A stretch of DNA of 24,590 nucleotides. Origin: a virus. This document shows positions 1,171 through 19,483 of this stretch, in pieces. The notes beneath the pieces are model-generated. The model made no database searches. It was not told the origin of the DNA and worked only from the letters and a program-made list of their open reading frames with translations. The stretch spans positions 1 to 24,590 of the IMG/VR virus record IMGVR_UViG_3300005782_000303, one strand, 5' to 3'. The stretch's first letter is position 1, and every line of letters begins with the position of its first letter. A program made the position numbers and the translations under genes.

Positions 1171-1223
1171 AATTTATTGTGGAGGATGCGGAGGATAAGG
1201 AGGATATAAATGGCTCTATTTGA
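1143..1223 (+). other. Candidate -1 slippery site and downstream -1 frame extension
   Basis: In the frame of the Lys-rich ORF the bases 1143-1149 read A AAG GGG, a perfect X XXY YYZ heptamer. A -1 slip would continue as GAA GAA TCC GGT GAA and so on to the TGA at 1221-1223. This adds 24 residues rich in Glu and Asp (EESGEVVEFIVEDAEDKEDI) and overlaps the next ATG by 14 bases. The extension has protein-like content and no start of its own with a good SD. A real indel in the neighbouring homopolymers would give the same picture. Confidence 0.4.
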
Positions 1224-1533
1224 AGCCTGTAAATCAACGGGACGAATTCCTGCGATGCCTGTTTCAACTATTACGCTTATAGATAGCTATTTAGTGGGTG
1301 TAGTTTTGGACGAGGGAAAGGGTGATGCTACACTCCTTGTAACTGATGGAAATGATGCTGAGTTACTCTATCTTACCATAGTTGCTGCTGTCGAGGGTTC
1401 ATCAAAAGCTGTAATGCTCCCTGTACCTGTTCTCGCTTCAAATGGGATAAAAGCTATTTTGACTGGACATGCAGATACCAGGTGTATTATTTATTACGCT
1501 GAACAATACTTCAGCGGACACAGGCACGTATAA
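1210..1533 (+). CDS. Small virion-operon protein, first of a tandem paralogous pair (107 aa)
   Basis: The ATG follows AGGAGG at 1199-1204. The product opens with MALFEACKSTGRI and ends with CIIYYAEQYFSGHRHV. The body is beta-rich (SYLVGVVLDEG, ATLLVTDGND, ELLYLTIVAA), with a PVPVLA turn before a final strand. It aligns along its whole length with the next gene, roughly every second residue matching. I do not recognise a named family. Length, beta character and position among fibre genes suggest a small decoration or fibre-associated protein of the particle. Confidence 0.7.
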   Translation: MALFEACKSTGRIPAMPVSTITLIDSYLVGVVLDEGKGDATLLVTDGNDAELLYLTIVAAVEGSSKAVMLPVPVLASNGIKAILTGHADTRCIIYYAEQYFSGHRHV

Positions 1534-5969: not shown

Positions 5970-6623
5970 ATGACTGCATTAGAGCTAGTGCAACAAGTTC
6001 AGGATTTGATTAGTGAGGAAACCTACGATAGATTTTCCAAACCAGAAATTATGCGTTGGCTAAATCGGGGTTTGGAAGATATCGCTAATAAAACCGGTTA
6101 CTTAACCTGGAAGTGGTTGATTACCACGGTAGCTAGTCATCGTGAATATCCTTATCCTACGGAAGCATTAAGGCTATTCAGGCTTGAGTATAATGATTTG
6201 CCTCTTTCTCCCTGTGATATACCAGGGATGGATGAGGTAACAGAGGAGACTGGAATAAAATGGCTTGCGGCAACTGGCCCGCCAGAGAATTGGTATCACT
6301 CTTGGAATAGAGCTTTTGGAATATATCCTACGCCTAATAAAGAGTATCCCATTTATGGCTATGGCTTTCACAAGGCAGCAGTCCTGTCAGATGATGCTCA
6401 CGTTCCTGTTATTCCTGACCAGTTCCATATAGCACCTGCTTTATTTGCGGCTTATCAGATATTACGGGAAGACAAGGATTTAATCACGATGGGTTCTGTG
6501 AGAAATGAATACTATAATCCCGCTAAACGCTCTGGAATCATCTATGACATGATAAAGGAAAAAAGGAAGATGAAGAATTTGGCTAGAGGTAGAACTATAA
6601 AATTAGCTAAATGGAGCTCATAA
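5970..6623 (+). CDS. Putative head-to-tail adaptor protein (217 aa)
   Basis: The ATG follows AAGGAG at 5959-5964. The N-terminus (LELVQQVQDLISEETYDRFSKPEIMRWLNRGLEDIANKTG) is an all-helical pattern found in podovirus-type adaptors: a pair of helices with an EI.RWLN..L motif. A middle beta region (EYPYPTEALRLFRLEYNDLPL, YGIYPTPN-type strands) and C-terminal helices (APALFAAYQILREDKD) follow. Adaptors form the ring between the portal and the tail tube. The stop TAA shares a base with the ATG of the nozzle-like gene (TAATG), the usual adaptor-nozzle order. Assignment is by pattern recognition only. Confidence 0.6.
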   Translation: MTALELVQQVQDLISEETYDRFSKPEIMRWLNRGLEDIANKTGYLTWKWLITTVASHREYPYPTEALRLFRLEYNDLPLSPCDIPGMDEVTEETGIKWLAATGPPENWYHSWNRAFGIYPTPNKEYPIYGYGFHKAAVLSDDAHVPVIPDQFHIAPALFAAYQILREDKDLITMGSVRNEYYNPAKRSGIIYDMIKEKRKMKNLARGRTIKLAKWSS

Positions 6624-8512
6624 TGCCCGTTACCCTAGATACAATTGACCTTAGAAATTGGGCTGGTGGTCTCAACCGTAGTTTGTCTGACTTCGAAATC
6701 CGAGATGACGAGTTGTGGCGAGCAGAGAACTGCTTTTTAGATTCAGCTGCTATTGTTAAACGAAAAGGCTATGTAAAGTTAAATGAGGATCCACTGATAG
6801 AGGATACTGAAGTTTTATCAGTCTATACTTACGGTTCTTACATATTAGCTAACTGTGGCACAAAAATCTTTGCCATAACTACTGCAGGTGTAGCTGTATC
6901 TATAGTTACAGGTTTAGAGGCAGGATACCCTGTTAGCTATGTCGTCTATGATGGCGTTGTCTATATGTCCAATGGCTATAATACGCCTTGGAAATGGGAT
7001 GGCGTGAGAGCTACCACTACGGTGGATGAAGATTCTGCTAATGGACAACCAATTCTCAAGGTTGCCTCCACTACAGACTTCGAGATTGGTAAAACCGTGG
7101 TTATCAATGAGGGTGGAGATAGGGAAGAGACTAAGATTATAGACGACATTGATGATGGTGTTTCTTTGACTATGACTCTGGATCTGACTTATGCTCATAC
7201 CGCACTCCAAGCAGACGAGGTATGGAGTGCAACAACTGAGCTTTCTGATTCTTTACCTAAAGCAAAGTGGCTTGTAGTTCATAGGGATAAGTTATTTTAC
7301 ATAGCTACCATCGACAACCCCAATTATGTTTATTTCTCTCAGGCTGGGATTCCCGAGACAATCGACGCCGATGCCTTCTTTATTGTTTACACCGATGACG
7401 GAGAGGATTTGACGGGTGCGGCTTCATTGTTTGGTTATCTTATGCTCTTTAAGAAATCCTCAATGCACCGACTTGCAGGAGCGTCGAAGGCACAATTGAC
7501 TCTAGCAAGCAACCTTGTCAGTGCTCATCCAAGAATTGGGTGCTTGGCGGCAAACACCATTATCCACGTTCCTGGAGGTTTGATGTTCTTATCCAACGAT
7601 GGAGTCCAATTCACTGATAGCGGTAATGCAGTCAAGCGAAGTGTAAAGGTAGATTATTTTTTGGGAAAGATTCCCGATGCGTATAAGGATAAATGCGCTG
7701 CTTTCTGGGATGGGAAGCGTTATAGAGTAGCTTATCCCAAAGGGACAAGTGCAGTGCCAGTTGAGAGCCTCGTCTATGATTTAGACTTTGGCTGTTGGTC
7801 GCTCTTTACCTACGGGATGAATGCTTTTGACAGAACCCCTGATGGAGTAGTCTATGCGGCAGGCTCAGATGGTCAGGTATATATAATTGATAGGGGACTG
7901 TCCGATGACTCCTCAGAAATTGAGATGAGAGTTGCCACTAAATTTTTTGATTTAGACACTCCTCGCACAACTAAGGTTTTCAGATATGCGGGGGCAAATT
8001 TTTATCGCAGTAACGCTTCTCCTGAATTTACATTTGTCATTGAAAGAGGATTAGCTTCTTGGCTAAAGTCTATTCCAGTAGGAACTGGTCTCACGTATTG
8101 GGGTGAGCATAACTGGGCAGTATCAGCGGGCACTGTTACTGTCACCAATGGCAACGCAAATGTTACTGGAGCGGGAGATGATTTAGATTGGAGTCACGTT
8201 GCCGCAGGGGATGATTTTCAAATTGATGGAGACGAAGACTCCTACATTATAGATAGCGTTGACGCTGAGGCTGAGACCTTAGTGTTGACTACGAATTACG
8301 AGGGGACGACTGGCGAGGGTAAGAGCTATGTTATCTGGAATGCTGATACATTGTTTTGGACTACTCCAACTCCTGCCTATAAAAAGTTTTCTTTGCCAAA
8401 AAGACTTAAAGGTAAAAATATGCAGATTCAAGTAAGAGAGATCGGAGATACCTCCGAGATTGAAATATATTCCTTAGACCTGGGATTATTCCCCCAGGAG
8501 GGAGCGAGATAA
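6623..8512 (+). CDS. Putative tail nozzle / DNA-stabilisation protein (629 aa)
   Basis: An in-frame ATG lies at 6611, but the ATG at 6623 is preferred: it has GGAG at 6612-6615 at good spacing and overlaps the adaptor stop (TAATG). The N-terminus (LRNWAGGLNRSLSDFEIRDDELWRAENCFLD) and repeated short beta blades (VYTYGSYILANCGTKIFAIT, VVYDGVVYMSNG, LVVHRDKLFYIATIDNPNYVYFS) match beta-propeller tail proteins related in role to P22 gp10 or T7 gp12. A later insertion (residues ~505-575) carries GNANVTGAGDDLDWSHV-type strands. Such proteins close the tail tube and hold DNA in the capsid. No catalytic residues are expected. Confidence 0.65.
   Translation: MPVTLDTIDLRNWAGGLNRSLSDFEIRDDELWRAENCFLDSAAIVKRKGYVKLNEDPLIEDTEVLSVYTYGSYILANCGTKIFAITTAGVAVSIVTGLEAGYPVSYVVYDGVVYMSNGYNTPWKWDGVRATTTVDEDSANGQPILKVASTTDFEIGKTVVINEGGDREETKIIDDIDDGVSLTMTLDLTYAHTALQADEVWSATTELSDSLPKAKWLVVHRDKLFYIATIDNPNYVYFSQAGIPETIDADAFFIVYTDDGEDLTGAASLFGYLMLFKKSSMHRLAGASKAQLTLASNLVSAHPRIGCLAANTIIHVPGGLMFLSNDGVQFTDSGNAVKRSVKVDYFLGKIPDAYKDKCAAFWDGKRYRVAYPKGTSAVPVESLVYDLDFGCWSLFTYGMNAFDRTPDGVVYAAGSDGQVYIIDRGLSDDSSEIEMRVATKFFDLDTPRTTKVFRYAGANFYRSNASPEFTFVIERGLASWLKSIPVGTGLTYWGEHNWAVSAGTVTVTNGNANVTGAGDDLDWSHVAAGDDFQIDGDEDSYIIDSVDAEAETLVLTTNYEGTTGEGKSYVIWNADTLFWTTPTPAYKKFSLPKRLKGKNMQIQVREIGDTSEIEIYSLDLGLFPQEGAR
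8479..8498 (+). promoter_or_regulatory. Small hairpin overlapping the SD of the collar gene
   Basis: CCTGGG (8479-8484) can pair with CCCAGG (8493-8498) across an 8-base loop. The right arm runs into the SD of the next gene (AGGAGGG, 8496-8502). It lies in the last codons of the nozzle-like gene. When folded it would partly hide the SD, which could tie collar translation to ribosomes finishing the upstream gene. It could also be chance. Confidence 0.3.
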
Positions 8513-8513
8513 A

Positions 8514-9095
8514 ATGGCTACAGTTGTAAGACCTCATACTTATCCAGAAGGGACGACAGCACAGCCCGCACACGCAAATGCAAATGAGATTGCTTTATAC
8601 AACGAGGTTAATGGAAAGCTCGATTGGCAGAACCTCAAGGCGGCATTAGCCAACGCCGCTAATGGTCTTGTCAAGCTAGATGCAGATGCGAAAGTTCCTG
8701 TGGCACAGATGCCTTCTATTGTTCCCAGTGGCGTGATTGTAATGTGGTCGGGGACATTGGCAACTATTCCTGACGGTTGGTCTTTGTGTGATGGAGAGGG
8801 TGAAACGCCTGATTTGAGAGATAGGTTCATTTATGGATGGAGTGATGGCGTTGATCCAGGCGATACGGGGGGAGCGACTACCCACACTCATACTTATTCT
8901 CAGGTGCCAGCTCATACTCATCGGATAAGATGCGCTGCGGGTATCCTTGCTTTAGTAGGGGCTGGAGCCGAAGTATGGACTGACCACGGCTATAAAACTG
9001 GTTGTATAGAATCTACTGGAGTAGCTAATCCGGTTACTAATGCAGGTTCGTCCTTGCCACCTTACTTTAAGCTCGCTTTTATTATGAAGGATTAG
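8514..9095 (+). CDS. Tail collar fibre protein (193 aa)
   Basis: The ATG follows AGGAGGG at 8496-8502. Residues ~70-110 (PSGVIVMWSGTLATIPDGW, LCDGEGETPDLRDRFIYG) are the phage tail-collar signature. Next comes a His-rich metal-binding segment (THTHTYSQVPAHTH), then NAGSSLPPYFKLAFIMKD, the standard end of the fold. Such His-x-His sites bind metal ions in trimeric fibre tips such as T4 gp12. The N-terminal 65 residues (RPHTYPEGTTAQPAHANANEI) are a typical fibre lead-in. It is the last clear surface-fibre gene before the internal proteins. Confidence 0.85.
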   Translation: MATVVRPHTYPEGTTAQPAHANANEIALYNEVNGKLDWQNLKAALANAANGLVKLDADAKVPVAQMPSIVPSGVIVMWSGTLATIPDGWSLCDGEGETPDLRDRFIYGWSDGVDPGDTGGATTHTHTYSQVPAHTHRIRCAAGILALVGAGAEVWTDHGYKTGCIESTGVANPVTNAGSSLPPYFKLAFIMKD

Positions 9096-10847: not shown

Positions 10848-11891
10848 ATGGCTGATTTAATTGGCAGAATGTTACAAGGAGGAGGAGGAGGAGGAGGGCT
10901 TCCAGATTTAACTAAACCATCAGGAGGCCCTTGGCAGCAATTAGGGGGTCTATTGGGGACAGCTGCTAAGGCTGGTCAACATTCACCAGAATATTACAGG
11001 GTAGCAGCCACTTACGAAGGCAGTGCGGCAAAAGCAGAGAGTAAGGCGAGTGATCTAGCGACTTTTAAGGATCAACCCGATATTCTGAACGACCTCATTG
11101 AACGAGATCCATACTGGCAGAAACATCCAAAAGGTAAAGCTTATTTAAAGACCCTGTTGGGACAAACGCCAGAGGTGAGACCCGAAACGCTTCCTCCAAC
11201 TCAAAGGGCAGCAACTTATAGGGGAGAAACTCAGCAATTGCTCAGCAGACTACCTGGAATGAGGGCTGGAATAGAGCCTGAATCCGAAATGGAACGGCGA
11301 TGGGTTGAAGCTATGAGACCTGGAATGATGTTACAGAAATATCCAGCGGAAGGATTTCGACCTTCAGGTCTTACTGAAGAGCAACAAAAAGAATGGGCAA
11401 CACTTGCAGGAGGTATCTTTGGTGGAATGCCACCTACGGCAACTGAAGCAGCCAAAGCCACAGTAAGGGGTGAAGTAGTTCCAGAACCCTCGCAGAAATT
11501 TGCTAGGTGGCTATCAATGAAAGGAAGCGATTTAAGCCAAATTAACGAAAACGAGCAGGCATTGGTCGCTTATCTTACTGAGGGAGCAAGTGTATTTACA
11601 AGTTTCCCAGGAGATACGGAAGCTGACCTAGCAATGAACTACGGAAGTTTAATGGCAGACGAAGACCTAAAGAGTCAGTTAGGAATAAAAGAGGATGATT
11701 TATCTACCTTCAGCCCTGAGAATATAAAGAGAATACCATTTATGGGTCGGATGTCAATTTTCGTAAATATGGTTAATAGTCTTCGACCAGATGACAAGTC
11801 GGCAGCTTATATTCTCTGGAATTGGTTTGAGGATATATTTGCAGGAGCGGCAGGAACGCCCCCATGGGCTAAACTTGCATGGGAGGAATAA
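10848..11891 (+). CDS. Hypothetical internal virion protein with poly-Gly segment (347 aa)
   Basis: The ATG follows TAGGAGG at 10832-10838. The N-terminus is MADLIGRMLQ then seven Gly, then a Pro/Gly-rich stretch, and from about residue 40 a soluble, mainly helical, charged protein (PDILNDLIERDPYWQKHP, ESEMERRWVEAMRPGM, DEDLKSQLGIKEDDLSTF). No TM segment or enzymatic motif is seen. It lies between the repeat protein and the 1365-aa protein with no gap to the latter, a position typical of podovirus inner-core genes. Role inferred from context only. Confidence 0.6.
   Translation: MADLIGRMLQGGGGGGGLPDLTKPSGGPWQQLGGLLGTAAKAGQHSPEYYRVAATYEGSAAKAESKASDLATFKDQPDILNDLIERDPYWQKHPKGKAYLKTLLGQTPEVRPETLPPTQRAATYRGETQQLLSRLPGMRAGIEPESEMERRWVEAMRPGMMLQKYPAEGFRPSGLTEEQQKEWATLAGGIFGGMPPTATEAAKATVRGEVVPEPSQKFARWLSMKGSDLSQINENEQALVAYLTEGASVFTSFPGDTEADLAMNYGSLMADEDLKSQLGIKEDDLSTFSPENIKRIPFMGRMSIFVNMVNSLRPDDKSAAYILWNWFEDIFAGAAGTPPWAKLAWEE
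10878..10898 (+). repeat. GGA microsatellite encoding seven Gly
   Basis: Six GGA codons followed by GGG lie near the 5' end of the 347-aa gene. Length changes of whole units would only change the Gly run. The repeat also mimics SD sequence on the mRNA; a later ATG at a fitting distance is not apparent. Listed as a sequence feature without proposed function. Confidence 0.7.
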
Positions 11892-14800
11892 TTGTCTCCC
11901 TTAATAGACATAGATAAGGAAATATTGGAGAGATGGTGGAATGAAGCACAAGATGAGCTACCACCTGAGGAGAGGCGATATACGCAAAGTTGGCTCCAGA
12001 AAAAAGAAGAAGCCTTAGAATTAAAGGCTGAAAAATATGGAGCTATAACTGAGCCAAAGCCTAAGTCTTGGTGGCAACGGGCTGTGGGAGGAGTGGAATG
12101 GCTTGGTAAAACTATAGCTGGACCGCTTATTCCAACAGTAAAACAACCTGAGTCTATAAAAATTCCTGAGCTTAAAATTCCCACAGAATGGCCCTTGTCT
12201 CCTCTTCTTCCAAAAATTAAAATTGCGTTCGGTCCACCAAAGGAATATAAAGAAGTCTATGCTCCTGAACTCGGCAAGATGGTTCCCGGCAAACGGGTAG
12301 AAACTCCTCTAGGAACAAAAATTGTTGAGCGACTTAAATTTGAGTGGGAGTCAGATTGGCCCAACTGGATTGGATTGGGTATATTTCTCGGCACTTATGG
12401 AGGTCTTAAAGCCATACCAGTGGCTTACGAAGGCATAATAAGCAAAAATGCCTCCAAGTTTGCTAAAACTAATTTGCCTGTGCTAAAAGAGAAATTTCCC
12501 GATGTTATTAAAACTGCTGAAGATGCTAAGATTTATGTTGAAATGGCCTTAAAGTATAAGCTTCAGCCTATATCAGAAAAGCTAGGTGGATTAAGGACAG
12601 GGGAAGCATTCCAGGTTATTAACAAACTATCTAGTCAAATTGGCAACTTAAAATTAGCTGCTCCTAAAGTTATACCGAGCTTACCTGCCGTTGCTGAAAA
12701 GATTATCACTCCAGCCACTATAGATTTAACGAATAAACTCGTTCAAACTGGATTAGATAAAGTTGGAGCCGAGGCTCTGGCTGGTTCAATGCACCTTATG
12801 AAAGAAGGGACAAATGAGCTAATCGTTGGTCAAGTGATAAATGATTTTGTAGATAGGAATATAGCACGAACTGAAGATTTAGCACCCCTGACGGCTGAAG
12901 AGAAACTGGGGTTTAATGAGATGAGAAGAACGCTGGACGAGAGAGTAACGGGTGTATTGGAGGAGGAATTTCCTCCTCCTAAAGTAGCACCGAAGGCTGA
13001 GATACCAGAAGAAGAAGCAACTGCATTCATTGGTGAATATGAATTTAAATTAGACCCCAAAATATATGTTGAGGCTGCAAACGAGGCTAATCGATCCGAT
13101 GAATTAGTTCGATATTATGCAGAAATGACTGATCAAATTGAGAAATGGAAACAGGGTCAAGACATTAAGGGTCTAAATGATGATGCTGAATTGGTTAGGC
13201 TGTCACAAGAAATATATTTAGCTCAAGGCTTAACAAAGGAAGGTAAAGCACCAAAGGGAAAGCCAATCGCTCCTAATTATCAAAGAGTCTTGGAGCTTGA
13301 AAGAAAAGCGGGAAAAATAGTAGAAAATAAAATTGAAAAATTGGACATTAAAGAAGTAGCACCGAAGGCTGAGACTATTACATCTGAACTTCAAGCTATG
13401 TTAAACGAAGCAAAAGAAGCTGAGGCTGGTAGAAGAATAAGAACTGAGACTGGAGTTTATATGGCAGAACCATCGACTTATCCTGACTGGATGAGTAATT
13501 ACAAAATAAGCAAAAAAAAGGCTCTGGAAGCGTTTGAGACAAAGAAAGGAATAACTTGGGAACGAATGCAAGACATTGCCAAGGATAGAGTTGAGCGTGG
13601 TTATAAGCATCCTGTATATGGTGAGGTGCCACCTAGTATGACTGAATTTTATTCTGGTATGCCTCTTCCTAAATCAACTCAAGTTTGGTTAAAAGATATG
13701 GTAAAACCTAGTGGAGAGCCAACTCTGGCTGTAGAGAAAGCCGTAAATAGCTGGTATGCTCAGACCAACGAGGCAACCCTATACGGAAAGAGGATGGGAG
13801 ATGCAATTCTAAAAGATATGGAGACCAGAAATATTCCTCGTTCTCAAATGAAACTCATCTTTAAGTATAGACAAATGCCAGATGAATATGCTAATCAAGT
13901 TAGTCCAGAAGAAAAAGAAATAGCTGATAAAATAGGGGAGAGTTTTGATAAACTGCACGCCCTAGCAAAAGAAAATGATGTATTGGAAGCCTATATAGAA
14001 AACTATATAACTCAGCTTTACAAAGATAAGCCTGAGGAAGTATACAAAAAACTCTATCCCGCTGGGGGAATGAGATTAGGCACAAAATTCAGATTTGCCC
14101 GCCAGAGGAAAATTCCCAACACTGATGAAGCAGAAAAACTGGGACTCCATCCTATTTATGACCTAGATACTGTAATACAAATTTATACCAATAGTCTTTA
14201 TCGAACTCTTGCCAATAAGCAATTTGTGGATTTCCTCAAAGAGATGAAAAATAAGGATGGCCTACCCTTGATAATGCGAACGGATAAGGCTCCTCCCAAT
14301 TACGTAATGGTTACTGAACCAGCGTTTAATAGATATATGTGGGCAGGGGAAAAGGAGACTGTAGAAGGCAAAGAAACTTATCTAGTTAAAATTCCCTGCA
14401 AAGCAGATCCTCAAGTAGCCAAAATAATAAATGATATGGTAAATCCCTTTGTGCGCTATAAGAGTTGGGCTGGACGAACTCTAACTACAGCTCAAGGCGT
14501 AGTAAAAAGACTAATAATGTATAACCCGATGATACACGGATGGAATGTCTTTTCTGATACTTTAGACGAGGCTAACTTTAATTTTATCACGGCTTTCAAA
14601 GCAACATTCCGAGGGAAAGTTCCCGATAAGCTAATGAAAGAGCTTGATTTTAAAGATGTAGACGAACTGGATTTGGATGCAGTGCAACATGGATTAGCTT
14701 CAGATGTAGTTTGGGCAGCTAGAAGTGAATTATACGAGAAAATGAAAACTCTGGAGAATACTGAGGTTTCAAAAATCTTACAACCACTTATCAAATTACG

Positions 14801-15989
14801 TGATTTTAATGATAAAGTGCTTTGGGGAAATATAGTTCTTGGCTCTCAAAGATATGTTTATCTCTTAAACATAGCCAAGCTAACAAAGAAGAACCCAGAT
14901 ATGGATATTGACCAGATAAAATCAATGGCAGCCCATTATACAAATGATTTACTGGGAACGCTTCCCTCTATTATCTTCACCAAGAATGAAGCAAACCTAC
15001 TTAGATTATTCCTATTTGCTAGAAACTGGACCGTGAGTAATTTGCGGCTTCTTACGGGGGCATTAGGCCAGACAGGAACCTCAAAAATAATCCCGGGATT
15101 TTTAAGACATAAGGGTTTATCAGCAGAAGAAGCAAATAAATTGGCTCCCCATTACCAGAAACATTTAATCAAGGGAATATTGGCACTTATTTTGATGACG
15201 ACTGGAATCAATAGTGTTATTAAATCTACACAAGAGGAAAAACCAACTGTATGGCTTCCTTGGGAAGCAGAAAAGGGACACGAATTTGATATAGACACAG
15301 GACTTAGAGATAAAAGAGGTAGAAAAATCTATATCAAGCCTCCCTTTTTCCGCTATATAGGAGATTACATTGGATATGGAACTGATCCGATGCAGACTGT
15401 AAAAAATAAAATGGAACCTTTAATGAAAGGAACCGCAGAGCAAGTTATAAACTATAGCCTATTTTTCAAGCGACCTATTACTGAGAGAGAAGGAATTGAT
15501 GCTATAAAAGATAGGTTACAATACTTCTTTAGAGGAACAACTCCTTATGGAACTGCTTATGGAGTTACGCAACCAGCCGCTAGGGGATGGGAGAAAATTG
15601 TACCTCTCACTGGAACTTGGGCAAGACACGGAATAACTCCTGAAATCACCATAAGATATAGATCATTATCAAGAGATGAGAGAGCTGACTTTTTGAAGAA
15701 ACTCAATCGGCAAGAAAAAAATGAATTTTTGCGTCTTTATTCTAAACAAAATTATGGTGCTAAACTTAGTGAAGAGGAACTAGCCAAATCCAGTAAATAT
15801 GCCCGTAAGATTATTGATTTTCGTGAAGAGACAGCAGGAAAATGGAAAGATATTGACAAAGAGATTGACGAACTAATACTGGATGGAAAAACCATACAGG
15901 CTATTAAACTTATGCAGAAAAGTGGTCGATATAAAAGTGTCCAAGGGATGAAAGATAGAATGAGAAGAGTGAAGGGTGGGTTACTTTAA
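11892..15989 (+). CDS. Large putative internal virion / DNA-ejection protein (1365 aa)
   Basis: TTG start directly after the preceding stop, with GGGAGG at 11881-11886. Regions: residues 1-130 soluble with WWQRAVGGVEWLGK; a Gly-rich hydrophobic stretch at ~155-175 (NWIGLGIFLGTYGGLKAI); long Lys/Glu-rich helices to ~520; a globular core at ~550-1080 (SQMKLIFKYRQMPDEYA, PIYDLDTVIQIYTNSLYR, MYNPMIHGWNVFSDTLDEAN, NEANLLRLFLFARNWTVSN); a hydrophobic helix at ~1093-1110 (KGILALILMTTGINSVI); and a charged C-terminal tail. The core resembles giant phage proteins ejected with the genome, but no lysozyme or transglycosylase motif is evident. The largest gene of the late block, it fits an inner-core pore or channel protein by size, order and hydrophobic helices. 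Confidence 0.6.
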   Translation: MSPLIDIDKEILERWWNEAQDELPPEERRYTQSWLQKKEEALELKAEKYGAITEPKPKSWWQRAVGGVEWLGKTIAGPLIPTVKQPESIKIPELKIPTEWPLSPLLPKIKIAFGPPKEYKEVYAPELGKMVPGKRVETPLGTKIVERLKFEWESDWPNWIGLGIFLGTYGGLKAIPVAYEGIISKNASKFAKTNLPVLKEKFPDVIKTAEDAKIYVEMALKYKLQPISEKLGGLRTGEAFQVINKLSSQIGNLKLAAPKVIPSLPAVAEKIITPATIDLTNKLVQTGLDKVGAEALAGSMHLMKEGTNELIVGQVINDFVDRNIARTEDLAPLTAEEKLGFNEMRRTLDERVTGVLEEEFPPPKVAPKAEIPEEEATAFIGEYEFKLDPKIYVEAANEANRSDELVRYYAEMTDQIEKWKQGQDIKGLNDDAELVRLSQEIYLAQGLTKEGKAPKGKPIAPNYQRVLELERKAGKIVENKIEKLDIKEVAPKAETITSELQAMLNEAKEAEAGRRIRTETGVYMAEPSTYPDWMSNYKISKKKALEAFETKKGITWERMQDIAKDRVERGYKHPVYGEVPPSMTEFYSGMPLPKSTQVWLKDMVKPSGEPTLAVEKAVNSWYAQTNEATLYGKRMGDAILKDMETRNIPRSQMKLIFKYRQMPDEYANQVSPEEKEIADKIGESFDKLHALAKENDVLEAYIENYITQLYKDKPEEVYKKLYPAGGMRLGTKFRFARQRKIPNTDEAEKLGLHPIYDLDTVIQIYTNSLYRTLANKQFVDFLKEMKNKDGLPLIMRTDKAPPNYVMVTEPAFNRYMWAGEKETVEGKETYLVKIPCKADPQVAKIINDMVNPFVRYKSWAGRTLTTAQGVVKRLIMYNPMIHGWNVFSDTLDEANFNFITAFKATFRGKVPDKLMKELDFKDVDELDLDAVQHGLASDVVWAARSELYEKMKTLENTEVSKILQPLIKLRDFNDKVLWGNIVLGSQRYVYLLNIAKLTKKNPDMDIDQIKSMAAHYTNDLLGTLPSIIFTKNEANLLRLFLFARNWTVSNLRLLTGALGQTGTSKIIPGFLRHKGLSAEEANKLAPHYQKHLIKGILALILMTTGINSVIKSTQEEKPTVWLPWEAEKGHEFDIDTGLRDKRGRKIYIKPPFFRYIGDYIGYGTDPMQTVKNKMEPLMKGTAEQVINYSLFFKRPITEREGIDAIKDRLQYFFRGTTPYGTAYGVTQPAARGWEKIVPLTGTWARHGITPEITIRYRSLSRDERADFLKKLNRQEKNEFLRLYSKQNYGAKLSEEELAKSSKYARKIIDFREETAGKWKDIDKEIDELILDGKTIQAIKLMQKSGRYKSVQGMKDRMRRVKGGLL

Positions 15990-16175
15990 TGTGTAATCAG
16001 GGGTCGATTTCGGTAGTCTATTGAAATTTTTTATGAAACGTAGAATATATTCTTGTTCTCGATACCACTTCATCATCTGCAATCTTGGTCTTATAAATGT
16101 TGGTTCAAATATTAGAGCGATTAGAGCAATAGCAATTACAGTCAGCATTATCTCAATGTAAAGGTTTTTCTTCAT
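15981..16175 (-). CDS. Reverse-strand single-TM small protein with its own promoter (64 aa), moron candidate
   Basis: The ATG at 16175 is chosen over an upstream in-frame GTG at 16184 because the SD (AGGAGGTG) includes that GTG and lies 6 bases before the ATG. Residues 1-6 are MKKNLY, then one TM helix (IMLTVIAIALIALIFEP), then a basic cytosolic or periplasmic region (RPRLQMMKWYREQEYILRFIKNFNRLP). The 3' end overlaps the end of the 1365-aa gene by 9 bases on the opposite strand. It is the only minus gene in the late block, with its own promoter. Possible roles are lysogenic conversion, superinfection exclusion or lysis control; none is shown by sequence. Confidence 0.75.
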   Translation of the reverse strand: MKKNLYIEIMLTVIAIALIALIFEPTFIRPRLQMMKWYREQEYILRFIKNFNRLPKSTPDYTLK

Positions 16176-16198
16176 CTCTCTCACCTCCTCGGTGGGGG

Positions 16199-16226
16199 AC
16201 TATATCAGAAAAAATAGTTTTGTCAA
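16199..16226 (-). promoter_or_regulatory. Sigma-70-type promoter for the reverse-strand gene
   Basis: On the minus strand, TTGACA (16226-16221) is followed after 16 bases by TATAGT (16204-16199). The -35 is perfect and the -10 differs from TATAAT at one base. The SD and ATG of the reverse gene follow within about 25 bases, giving a very short leader. It lies in the only intergenic gap between the 1365-aa gene and the lysis cassette. Confidence 0.8.
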
Positions 16227-16238
16227 GAGGCAACTAAA

Positions 16239-16436
16239 ATGAACAAGTTCAAAGATCCAGAGCATAATCTACTGTGGGCGGAAATTCATTGGGTAAAGGA
16301 ATCCGTAAAAAATCATATTACAACCAGGCTCGACAGGATTGATGCTCGTATGTGGAAAGGTTTTGCCATTATTCTCACAATCCTGGGCACTTTGAGTATA
16401 GCTCTAATACTAGCTTTGCTAAAAATACTTCCATAG
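16239..16436 (+). CDS. Small C-terminal-TM protein, XhlA-like layout (65 aa)
   Basis: The ATG follows AAGAGG at 16225-16230. An amphipathic N-terminal region (EHNLLWAEIHWVKESVKNHITTRLDRIDARMWKG in two parts) is followed by a C-terminal TM helix (FAIILTILGTLSIALILALLKIL). This layout of about 65-90 aa with one C-terminal TM matches XhlA-type lysis accessory proteins, which work with holin and endolysin. It opens the lysis/surface cassette, which supports that reading. A holin or generic membrane anchor is the alternative. Confidence 0.6.
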   Translation: MNKFKDPEHNLLWAEIHWVKESVKNHITTRLDRIDARMWKGFAIILTILGTLSIALILALLKILP

Positions 16437-16446
16437 GAGTTGCATC

Positions 16447-16593
16447 TTGCAAAGTTCATTGTATAATAATAGTAAATATCGAGTGAGTAAATCAAAGTCC
16501 AAAAAAGGGGTACTTCCGTGCGAGTTTTACCTGCGAGATTTTTTAGATAATGATGCAATCCTGGCTTTAGAGAGATTAAGGAGAGAGAAATGA
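16447..16593 (+). CDS. Small basic protein, TTG start (48 aa)
   Basis: The TTG at 16447 has TAGGAG at 16434-16439 at good spacing. The 48-residue frame has a Lys/Ser-rich N-terminus (SKYRVSKSKSKKG), then a hydrophobic/charged helix (CEFYLRDFLDNDAILALERL) and RREK. Its TGA overlaps the ATG of the 582-aa gene (ATGA), an arrangement of real coupled genes. Function unknown. The overlap and the SD support it more than the sequence itself. Confidence 0.55.
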   Translation: MQSSLYNNSKYRVSKSKSKKGVLPCEFYLRDFLDNDAILALERLRREK

Positions 16594-18338
16594 GAAAGTT
16601 ACTAAAGGCTGAGGGATATGACGAGATTTTCGAGATAGCCGATGATGGTCACAAGTGCTGGATAGAAACGTGGGAGACATTTCTCTATCTCGGCTATAAG
16701 ATTGAGGACGTAGAGCCTATTCCCTTCGAGGAGCTAAGAGACGACTATCCCGTGGGGCCGACGAAAGTTAAAAAAATCATCACGACTATCATTGAGGGAA
16801 AGAAGCCTCGTGAAATTTTCTATCCAGAGGAGGAGCCTCAGCCAGAACCAGAGCCTGAGCCAGAATTTCCTGTGGTTAAATCCCTGCGGGGTGACTACTA
16901 TCACCTCGGAGTGCGTACAGGTAGTGGAGGAACAGACATTCCCCGACTTGTAGCCGCACTCAAAAAAATGCACGCACAGGACTATATGCACCAAATCTGG
17001 AAAGACGGGAATCCCTGGCAGGATTTTCAACTAATGGCTCCAGAGTTTCAAAAAGCTGGAATTCAGTTGTGGCTTTACTTAGTGCCACCTTCGGAACCGC
17101 CAGCACCAGAACCGTTTAAGTATGACTATGTAAAGTGGGCTGTGGAGTGCGCTAAGTTAGCTGAGAACTATCCAGTTATTCGGGGGATCTGCATCGATGA
17201 TTTCAATGGTAATGTTTCTAAGTTTACTCCTAGTTACTGCAAACAGATGATGAATGCAGCTCGGAGAATAACACCCCACCTAGCGCTTCTGGCTGTTTCG
17301 TACTATGGCTACTATGGTAATATTGCACCTCACGTGAAGGAAAGGGCTATCGATGGTGTGGTCTTTCCCTATCTATTTCCCCACAAGAACCATTGGGATA
17401 CATCTAAGCTTCTACCACAAATCAAGGAATATCGCAGTTGGTTAGATAATCAGAATGCTCAATACAAAATGCCTCTGATTATAATGCCTTTTGCGATGAG
17501 ACATTCACAGTGTCCTGATGAGCCAAAGCCCGAATATGTGAAGAAATGCCTTGAGATTAGTTTGAATGCTACTGAAACGCACGGGACTGTCATTTATTGT
17601 TTACCTAAAGATAAGCCAGAGTTTGTTAATGCAGTGGCTTCGGTTTATGGAAACAATCCAGAGAATCCCTATGCTGATGTGAGAGGACTTCTTACACTCA
17701 ATCCCAAGCCCTCAGCAGCCAAAGCACGAGAATTAGGATTCAATTTGATAATTCCCTATGCTAGTAAGGTGAGTGGTTGGGATAGAAAATGGATTCCTAA
17801 CACCAGAACTCCTTGGGCAAATGAAGATGATGTTGAGGCGTATAGTATGTGTGATGAGTCTGATTGTCGGAAGCACGATCCCCAAGAGGAGCTAAAGCGT
17901 TTTGAGGAAATGAAGGGAAAGACCAGCAAGCCTGTGGGTAGTGTAATGTGCTGTGATATAGGCTGTGGCTTCCCAGTCGGATCTCCAGAAGAAAAGGAAG
18001 CACTCAAGAAGGAGTGGCTGGCGGTTGTGAATCAGTGGGATGTGGTGATATGTTCTACCTATCCCTACAACACAAAGTGGGGGCAGACTCCGCTCCAGTA
18101 CATGGAGAGATTTTATAACGACTGGAAACAGAATATAAGAATTCCCATCATTGTAATCGTTCAGGCTATGTGGGATACTCAAGGATTCACAAAGCCCAGT
18201 GCTATCTATCAGGTTAAGTATTGGGTTGATAGGGGATTTGGTATCATCGTCTATCCCTGGAAAGACGATAACGGCACTGGTGTTTGTGCTGCTCAGGATG
18301 AATGGAAGGAAGCATTAAAATATAAGAAGGAGGCCTAA
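16590..18338 (+). CDS. Two-barrel glycoside-hydrolase-like protein (582 aa)
   Basis: The ATG overlaps the preceding stop, with AAGGAGAG just upstream. Residues 1-77 form a small N-terminal domain (LLKAEGYDEIFEIADDGHKCWIE), followed by a Pro-Glu linker at 78-94 (PEPEPEPE). Residues ~100-355 resemble a TIM barrel: strands ending HLGVRTGSG, GIQLWLYLVPPSEPP, RGICIDDFNGN (Asp203-Asp204), LALLAVSYYGYYG, IDGVVFPYLFPH. Residues ~360-580 look like a second barrel (FNLIIPYASKVSGW, VEAYSMCDESD, IPIIVIVQAMWDTQGF, FGIIVYPWKDDNG). The acidic pair at a strand end suggests a glycosidase-type site. Position near lysis genes allows a cell-wall or capsule hydrolase, or a host-binding protein. Family not identified. 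Confidence 0.6.
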   Translation: MRKLLKAEGYDEIFEIADDGHKCWIETWETFLYLGYKIEDVEPIPFEELRDDYPVGPTKVKKIITTIIEGKKPREIFYPEEEPQPEPEPEPEFPVVKSLRGDYYHLGVRTGSGGTDIPRLVAALKKMHAQDYMHQIWKDGNPWQDFQLMAPEFQKAGIQLWLYLVPPSEPPAPEPFKYDYVKWAVECAKLAENYPVIRGICIDDFNGNVSKFTPSYCKQMMNAARRITPHLALLAVSYYGYYGNIAPHVKERAIDGVVFPYLFPHKNHWDTSKLLPQIKEYRSWLDNQNAQYKMPLIIMPFAMRHSQCPDEPKPEYVKKCLEISLNATETHGTVIYCLPKDKPEFVNAVASVYGNNPENPYADVRGLLTLNPKPSAAKARELGFNLIIPYASKVSGWDRKWIPNTRTPWANEDDVEAYSMCDESDCRKHDPQEELKRFEEMKGKTSKPVGSVMCCDIGCGFPVGSPEEKEALKKEWLAVVNQWDVVICSTYPYNTKWGQTPLQYMERFYNDWKQNIRIPIIVIVQAMWDTQGFTKPSAIYQVKYWVDRGFGIIVYPWKDDNGTGVCAAQDEWKEALKYKKEA

Positions 18339-18961: not shown

Positions 18962-19483
18962 ATGCTACTAAAAATTAGAATCAGTATTCTCATAACGATA
19001 CTGGGAGGTTTGGTTATGCTTGCGGTGCTTCCTTTGCCTGCTGGCAAAGATGACCCAGATGTAATTTATGCCGCACAGACCGTATTCGGAGAGGCTAGGG
19101 GAGAGTGCTGGAATGCTAAACTTGGCGTGGTTCACGTAATTGTTAATCGGAAGAAAGTTAAACGAAGATACTTTGGCCGCAGCATAAAAACCATTGTGCA
19201 AAAGCCTCAGCAGTTTAGTTGCTGGAATCACAGAGACCCAAACCGCTCAAAGATACATGACCCGCTGAAGCACGAGAGCGTTGATGTTTGGCTGGAATGC
19301 TACATAGCTGCTCGTCTTGTCTTGCGGGGAGAGGTAAAAGACAATACTGGTCAGGCTCTTTACTACATTGACGAGTCAATTATCGACAATCCTCCCGCTT
19401 GGGTAGCCAAACTAGAGCTATCTGCTCAGCACGGAAAGCTATATTTCTTCAGGGAAAGAAAGGTTAGGACTAAAGAATGCTAA
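18962..19483 (+). CDS. SleB-type cell-wall hydrolase endolysin with N-terminal TM (173 aa)
   Basis: The core matches the cell-wall hydrolase SleB family: AQTVFGEARGE (Glu44, Glu48), VVHVIVNRKK, IVQKPQQFSCWN, VLRGEVKDNTGQALYYI. These hydrolases cut the glycan strand of peptidoglycan; the EARGE Glu is the probable acid. Residues 1-24 form a signal-anchor-like helix. The ATG at 18962 has no SD. An in-frame ATG at 19016 (residue 19) has GGGAGG at 19003-19008 and would give a product with almost no TM. So both an exported and a soluble form are possible. It overlaps the spanin-like gene by 7 bases and follows the holin candidate. Confidence 0.8.
   Translation: MLLKIRISILITILGGLVMLAVLPLPAGKDDPDVIYAAQTVFGEARGECWNAKLGVVHVIVNRKKVKRRYFGRSIKTIVQKPQQFSCWNHRDPNRSKIHDPLKHESVDVWLECYIAARLVLRGEVKDNTGQALYYIDESIIDNPPAWVAKLELSAQHGKLYFFRERKVRTKEC

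What the first reader, a model, noticed from the sequence alone, without database searches (positions are those of the whole stretch)
15981..16226. Promoter-bearing reverse-strand membrane gene inside the late operon (moron candidate)
One small single-TM gene faces against all its late-operon neighbours and carries its own near-consensus sigma-70 promoter (TTGACA, 16 bases, TATAGT) and strong SD. Known morons have this layout and act in the prophage state, for example in superinfection exclusion or surface change. Its transcript would also be antisense to the end of the 1365-aa gene, and the promoter sits at the boundary with the lysis genes, so lysis control is a second option.
Basis: partly seen in the sequence, partly recalled or inferred. 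Interest (0 to 1): 0.65.

Follow-up and report, generated by a model that had tools for sequence, protein, structure and literature searches.

The report
Swappable reverse gene with own promoter
A short-tailed phage of an unknown bacterium carries one small membrane-protein gene that runs backwards inside its virion genes under its own strong promoter; two related phages keep the promoter, one with a diverged copy and one with an unrelated exported protein, which fits an accessory slot like the one that holds phage P22's superinfection-exclusion gene sieA.

Summary
A 64-aa single-TM ORF (15984-16175, reverse) has a near-consensus extended -10 promoter (TTGACA-16-TATAGT, TG before -10) and a GGAGG Shine-Dalgarno, the only such combination in the window (0.01 expected). 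Two relatives, found through the neighbouring 65-aa gene, keep the promoter/leader beside that gene. One (L007) encodes a 35%-identical 68-aa TM protein; the other (L008) an unrelated 155-aa signal-peptide protein. In window versus L008, identity falls from 81% in the leader to shuffle level at the start codon. L007's contig has the same promoter type, reverse only, on two beta-barrel outer-membrane genes set in its forward block and at three sites near its early region. So this is a moron-type exchange slot for envelope proteins, under an early-type host promoter. Its layout (reverse, tail-to-tail with the presumed last ejection-protein gene, own promoter, inner-membrane product) matches P22 sieA, without sequence homology. 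SieA-like exclusion of related phages is the best guess, not shown. Prophage expression is unsupported (no tyrosine or serine recombinase or HTH_3 repressor found, records incomplete). Lysis control is unlikely. A new member of a known kind.

The parts
15981..16175 (-). 64-aa single-TM accessory gene (ATG 16175, stop 15983-15981); net-positive C-terminal half suggests N-out/C-in
   Evidence: homolog L007:9731-9937 at the same position; TM by hydropathy, single helix by AlphaFold
16199..16226 (-). sigma-70-type promoter TTGACA-16-TATAGT with extended -10 (TGA before TATAGT)
   Evidence: conserved at the same place in L007 and L008
16176..16198 (-). leader with Shine-Dalgarno (CACCGAGGAGGTGAGAGAG); SD inside a small predicted hairpin
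   Evidence: nearly identical in L008, CACCGAAAGGAGG in L007; fold
16239..16436 (+). 65-aa TM-protein gene; conserved right-hand border of the slot, 84% (L007) and 91% (L008) DNA identity
11892..15989 (+). 1365-aa protein, presumed largest ejection (internal virion) protein; left-hand border of the slot, C-terminus not conserved among the three phages
   Evidence: position after SU10-type adaptor and nozzle-like gene; ejection role inferred from position and size, no family match

Best explanation
The reverse gene is a moron-type accessory gene in an exchange slot between the presumed last ejection-protein gene and a conserved 65-aa gene. Shown by sequence: its own extended -10 sigma-70-type promoter and ribosome-binding site; conservation of promoter/leader with a diverged or replaced coding sequence in two relatives; a single-TM product. 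Inferred: host RNA polymerase transcribes it independently of the late operon, probably early in infection, because a relative has the same promoter type near its early region. Inferred, less certain: the protein sits in the inner membrane and blocks DNA entry of superinfecting related phages by interfering with their ejection proteins, as P22 SieA does from the same layout.
For: Window versus L008: leader 81% and 65-aa gene 91% identical, while the reverse coding sequences are at shuffle level (36% vs 36%); the blastn match starts at 16165, just inside the reverse gene. L007 has the same layout with a 35%-identical TM protein. Promoter motif TTGACA-N13/14-TGNTAT: 6 on the reverse strand and 0 on the forward strand of the 54.7-kb relative against 0.05 expected; two drive OMP_b-brl genes (E 4e-14 and 1e-14) set reverse in its forward block, three lie at 35.7-37.2 kb near the early region. 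Early character of that region: RecT, RusA, DnaB-like. P22 sieA: reverse strand, 22 bp from the end of gene 16, own promoter, inner-membrane protein blocking injection, escape mutations in ejection proteins gp16 and gp20 (PMC10883804). The large proteins of window and L007 share a 64%-identical 100-aa stretch that BLAST does not find in L008, and only window and L007 share the TM-gene family.
Against: No homology to SieA (hhalign probability 0.1%) or to any Pfam, PADLOC or PDB entry; PHROG and NCBIfam gave only weak TM-level hits. SieA is 164 aa with several TM segments, this protein is 64 aa with one. The L008 product is exported rather than a membrane anchor, so the slot does not hold one function. 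Only three occupied slots are known and no empty one. No convincing terminator follows the gene. The ejection role of the 1365-aa protein is positional inference. No expression data; host unknown.
Confidence: 0.45

Rival explanations
1. Accessory envelope gene with another role: it alters the host surface or inner membrane for host fitness, phage-receptor masking or membrane stress, not by blocking ejection.
For: The slot gene is replaced by an unrelated exported protein in L008, and the same promoter type drives outer-membrane beta-barrels elsewhere in the L007 contig.
Against: Layout next to the presumed ejection genes copies P22 sieA; two of three slot genes are small inner-membrane proteins.
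Confidence: 0.3
2. The promoter mainly makes an antisense or convergent transcript that limits expression of the end of the 1365-aa gene; the small proteins are secondary.
For: Tail-to-tail arrangement with 1-9 bp spacing or overlap in all three phages and no convincing terminator after the reverse gene; the promoter is better conserved than the genes.
Against: Good Shine-Dalgarno and start codon in every case; a conserved protein family in two of three; P22 sieA has the same arrangement and encodes a functional protein.
Confidence: 0.08
3. Lysis control: an antiholin or timing protein expressed against the lysis genes.
For: Single-TM protein beside a 65-aa TM protein, upstream of the lysis genes.
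Against: The lysis enzyme is 2.7 kb downstream behind a 582-aa gene; in L007 and L008 the following genes are a methylase and subtilases; in L008 the slot gene is an unrelated exported protein.
Confidence: 0.06
4. Ordinary early-gene fragment: an early gene displaced into the late block by rearrangement, with no special role.
For: It carries the promoter type seen near the relative's early region.
Against: Same position in three phages that otherwise differ on both sides; consistent envelope targeting of the products.
Confidence: 0.08

Closest known systems
sieA of Salmonella phage P22, in the 'ant moron' between gene 16 and tailspike gene 9
   Same: Reverse strand inside the late operon, tail-to-tail with the last ejection-protein gene, own promoter, membrane protein, variable region between relatives.
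   Different: No sequence homology; 64 aa with one TM against 164 aa with several; P22 is temperate, lysogeny not shown here; no mnt/arc/ant genes.
HK97 gp15 moron
   Same: Phage-encoded predicted inner-membrane superinfection-exclusion protein described as a moron (cited in PMC10883804).
   Different: HK97 is long-tailed and its exclusion involves the tape measure protein; the sequence was not compared here.
lambda bor and lom (from own knowledge)
   Same: Envelope-protein morons in the lambda late region; lom is an outer-membrane barrel, like the L007-contig genes.
   Different: Act in lysogens; unrelated small TM gene here; not compared here.

Membership tests
Moron (independently transcribed gene inserted in a phage operon) | Own promoter, orientation independent of the operon | tested here: met
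   (promoter by sequence; activity not tested)
Moron (independently transcribed gene inserted in a phage operon) | Gene differs or is absent in related phages at the same place | tested here: met
   Diverged in L007, replaced in L008; an empty slot was not found
Moron (independently transcribed gene inserted in a phage operon) | Own transcription terminator (from own knowledge of the original definition) | tested here: inconclusive
   Only weak hairpins downstream
Moron (independently transcribed gene inserted in a phage operon) | Base composition differs from neighbours | tested here: inconclusive
   GC 32% against 42% for the window, but a 192-bp hydrophobic gene and 38% to its left
Moron (independently transcribed gene inserted in a phage operon) | Expressed from the prophage | not testable with these tools
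   No expression data; no integrase, resolvase or HTH_3 match in three incomplete records
SieA superinfection-exclusion protein | Sequence homology to SieA | tested here: not met
SieA superinfection-exclusion protein | Position between the gene 16 homolog and the following late gene, reverse, own promoter | tested here: inconclusive
   Layout matches P22, but the 1365-aa protein as gene 16 equivalent is inferred from position only
SieA superinfection-exclusion protein | Blocks DNA injection of relatives | not testable with these tools
   Needs a host and plating assay

The most novel reading that the evidence does not exclude
A conserved promoter/leader joined to the conserved 65-aa gene acts as an anchor through which envelope proteins are exchanged at one slot, and the small TM family (window, L007) is a new superinfection-exclusion family matched to the neighbouring ejection protein, in phages that may be virulent and express it early.
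Probability: 0.2. Interest if true: 0.6.

Novelty: new member of a known kind. Interest (0 to 1): 0.38.

Why it matters
It suggests that the P22-type arrangement of a swappable membrane protein beside the ejection genes recurs in uncultured short-tailed phages with no sequence homology to P22's sieA, and it gives two small proteins and a set of promoters as testable candidates for exclusion genes outside the enterobacteria.

Tried and rejected
Whole-region megablast against phages: no match. Direct search for the 64-aa protein in viral contigs and phages: none. The 1365-aa, 582-aa and C-terminal queries gave no slot-covering relatives. Both genome-contig scans found nothing, so the host is unknown. 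Distant relatives from the alignment scan either do not reach the slot or are too divergent to compare. The L010 match of the promoter pattern is an unrelated phage with a cytosolic-type gene behind it. The L008 protein model is poor (pLDDT 48) and was not used for fold search; the 64-aa model is a lone helix, so fold search would be uninformative. Phage_integrase, HTH_3 and Resolvase searches were negative; other integrase, repressor and transposase families were not searched.

Full report
What is there. The window is a 24.6-kb linear viral record. Forward genes run from the left end to about 19.9 kb: a protein with the SU10 adaptor profile (5970-6623, PF24175, E 1.5e-16), a nozzle or stabilisation-like protein (6611-8512; relatives annotated 'phage stabilization protein'; structural PHROG hits), a tail-collar protein (8514-9095), then 417-, 347- and 1365-aa proteins without family matches that I take for ejection proteins from position and size, a 65-aa TM protein, a 582-aa protein and lysis genes with a Hydrolase_2 enzyme at 18962-19483. 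Reverse genes fill 19.97-24.6 kb. The only reverse gene with a promoter inside the forward block is the 64-aa ORF at 15984-16175.

Observation. The promoter is TTGACA-16-TATAGT with TG before the -10, 11 of 12 matches. Promoter-like sites as such are no commoner than in shuffles, but promoter plus GGAGG occurs once against 0.01 expected. The ORF starts at ATG 16175 after AGGAGGTG and overlaps the end of the 1365-aa gene by 9 bp.

Relatives. The 64-aa protein itself found nothing, but the 65-aa neighbour found two contigs, L007 (54.7 kb, G001) and L008 (27.5 kb, G002). In both, a reverse gene lies between the large protein (1166 and 1276 aa) and the 65-aa gene, with TTGACA-N13-TGN-TATA at the same place. 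L007 encodes a 68-aa TM protein 35% identical to the window's, score 77 against 25 +/- 5 in shuffles. L008 encodes an unrelated 155-aa protein with a signal-peptide-like N-terminus. In the comparison of window and L008, identity is 91% in the 65-aa gene, 81% in the leader and at shuffle level in the reverse gene and in the end of the large gene. So the promoter is on the conserved side and the coding sequence is exchanged.

Promoter family. In G001 the motif TTGACA-N13/14-TGNTAT occurs six times on the reverse strand and never on the forward strand (0.05 expected). One drives the slot gene, two drive reverse genes for outer-membrane beta-barrel proteins (PF13505) in the forward block, and three lie at 35.7-37.2 kb, next to the reverse block that holds RecT, RusA and DnaB-like genes. 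The window and G002 carry it at the slot; the window has one further match at 11757 without a Shine-Dalgarno. The natural reading is that these genes are read by host sigma-70 polymerase on the early schedule. This is inference; the early regions of the window and G002 phages are not fully in the records.

Function. P22 sieA has the same layout: reverse, 22 bp from the end of ejection gene 16, own promoter, in the variable 'ant moron'. [quoted passage not shown] The window protein is predicted to be an inner-membrane protein, and its relative in L007 goes with a large protein sharing a 64%-identical 100-aa stretch not found in L008; with three phages this is only suggestive. There is no homology to SieA. 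I therefore say it may work like SieA and do not file it as SieA.

Alternatives and limits. Lysis control is unlikely since the lysis enzyme is distant and the slot content changes. An antisense effect on the large gene is possible but secondary. Prophage expression is unsupported: no match to Phage_integrase, Resolvase or HTH_3, though the records are incomplete and other families were not searched. The host is unknown; the beta-barrel genes suggest a host with an outer membrane.

Noticed in passing
L007:1652-2290 and L018:4439-5107 (G001): Two reverse beta-barrel genes on the contig are 96% identical over a 573-bp block with unlike ends and differing promoters: gene conversion, exchange or an assembly effect.
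   Followed up: partly
window 16447-16593 (+): A 48-aa ORF after the 65-aa gene is conserved in L007, within the 82%-identical block 16219-16580; TATAAT near its start.
   Followed up: no
window 16590-18338 (+): 582-aa protein without Pfam, PHROG or NCBIfam match; relatives have a methylase and subtilases at this place.
   Followed up: no
window 12962-13352: Near-identical contig L002 has 46 nt in place of these 391 nt in the 1365-aa gene, a 345-nt in-frame difference.
   Followed up: no
window 1210-1533 and 1554-1874: Tandem related genes, about 70% DNA identity.
   Followed up: no
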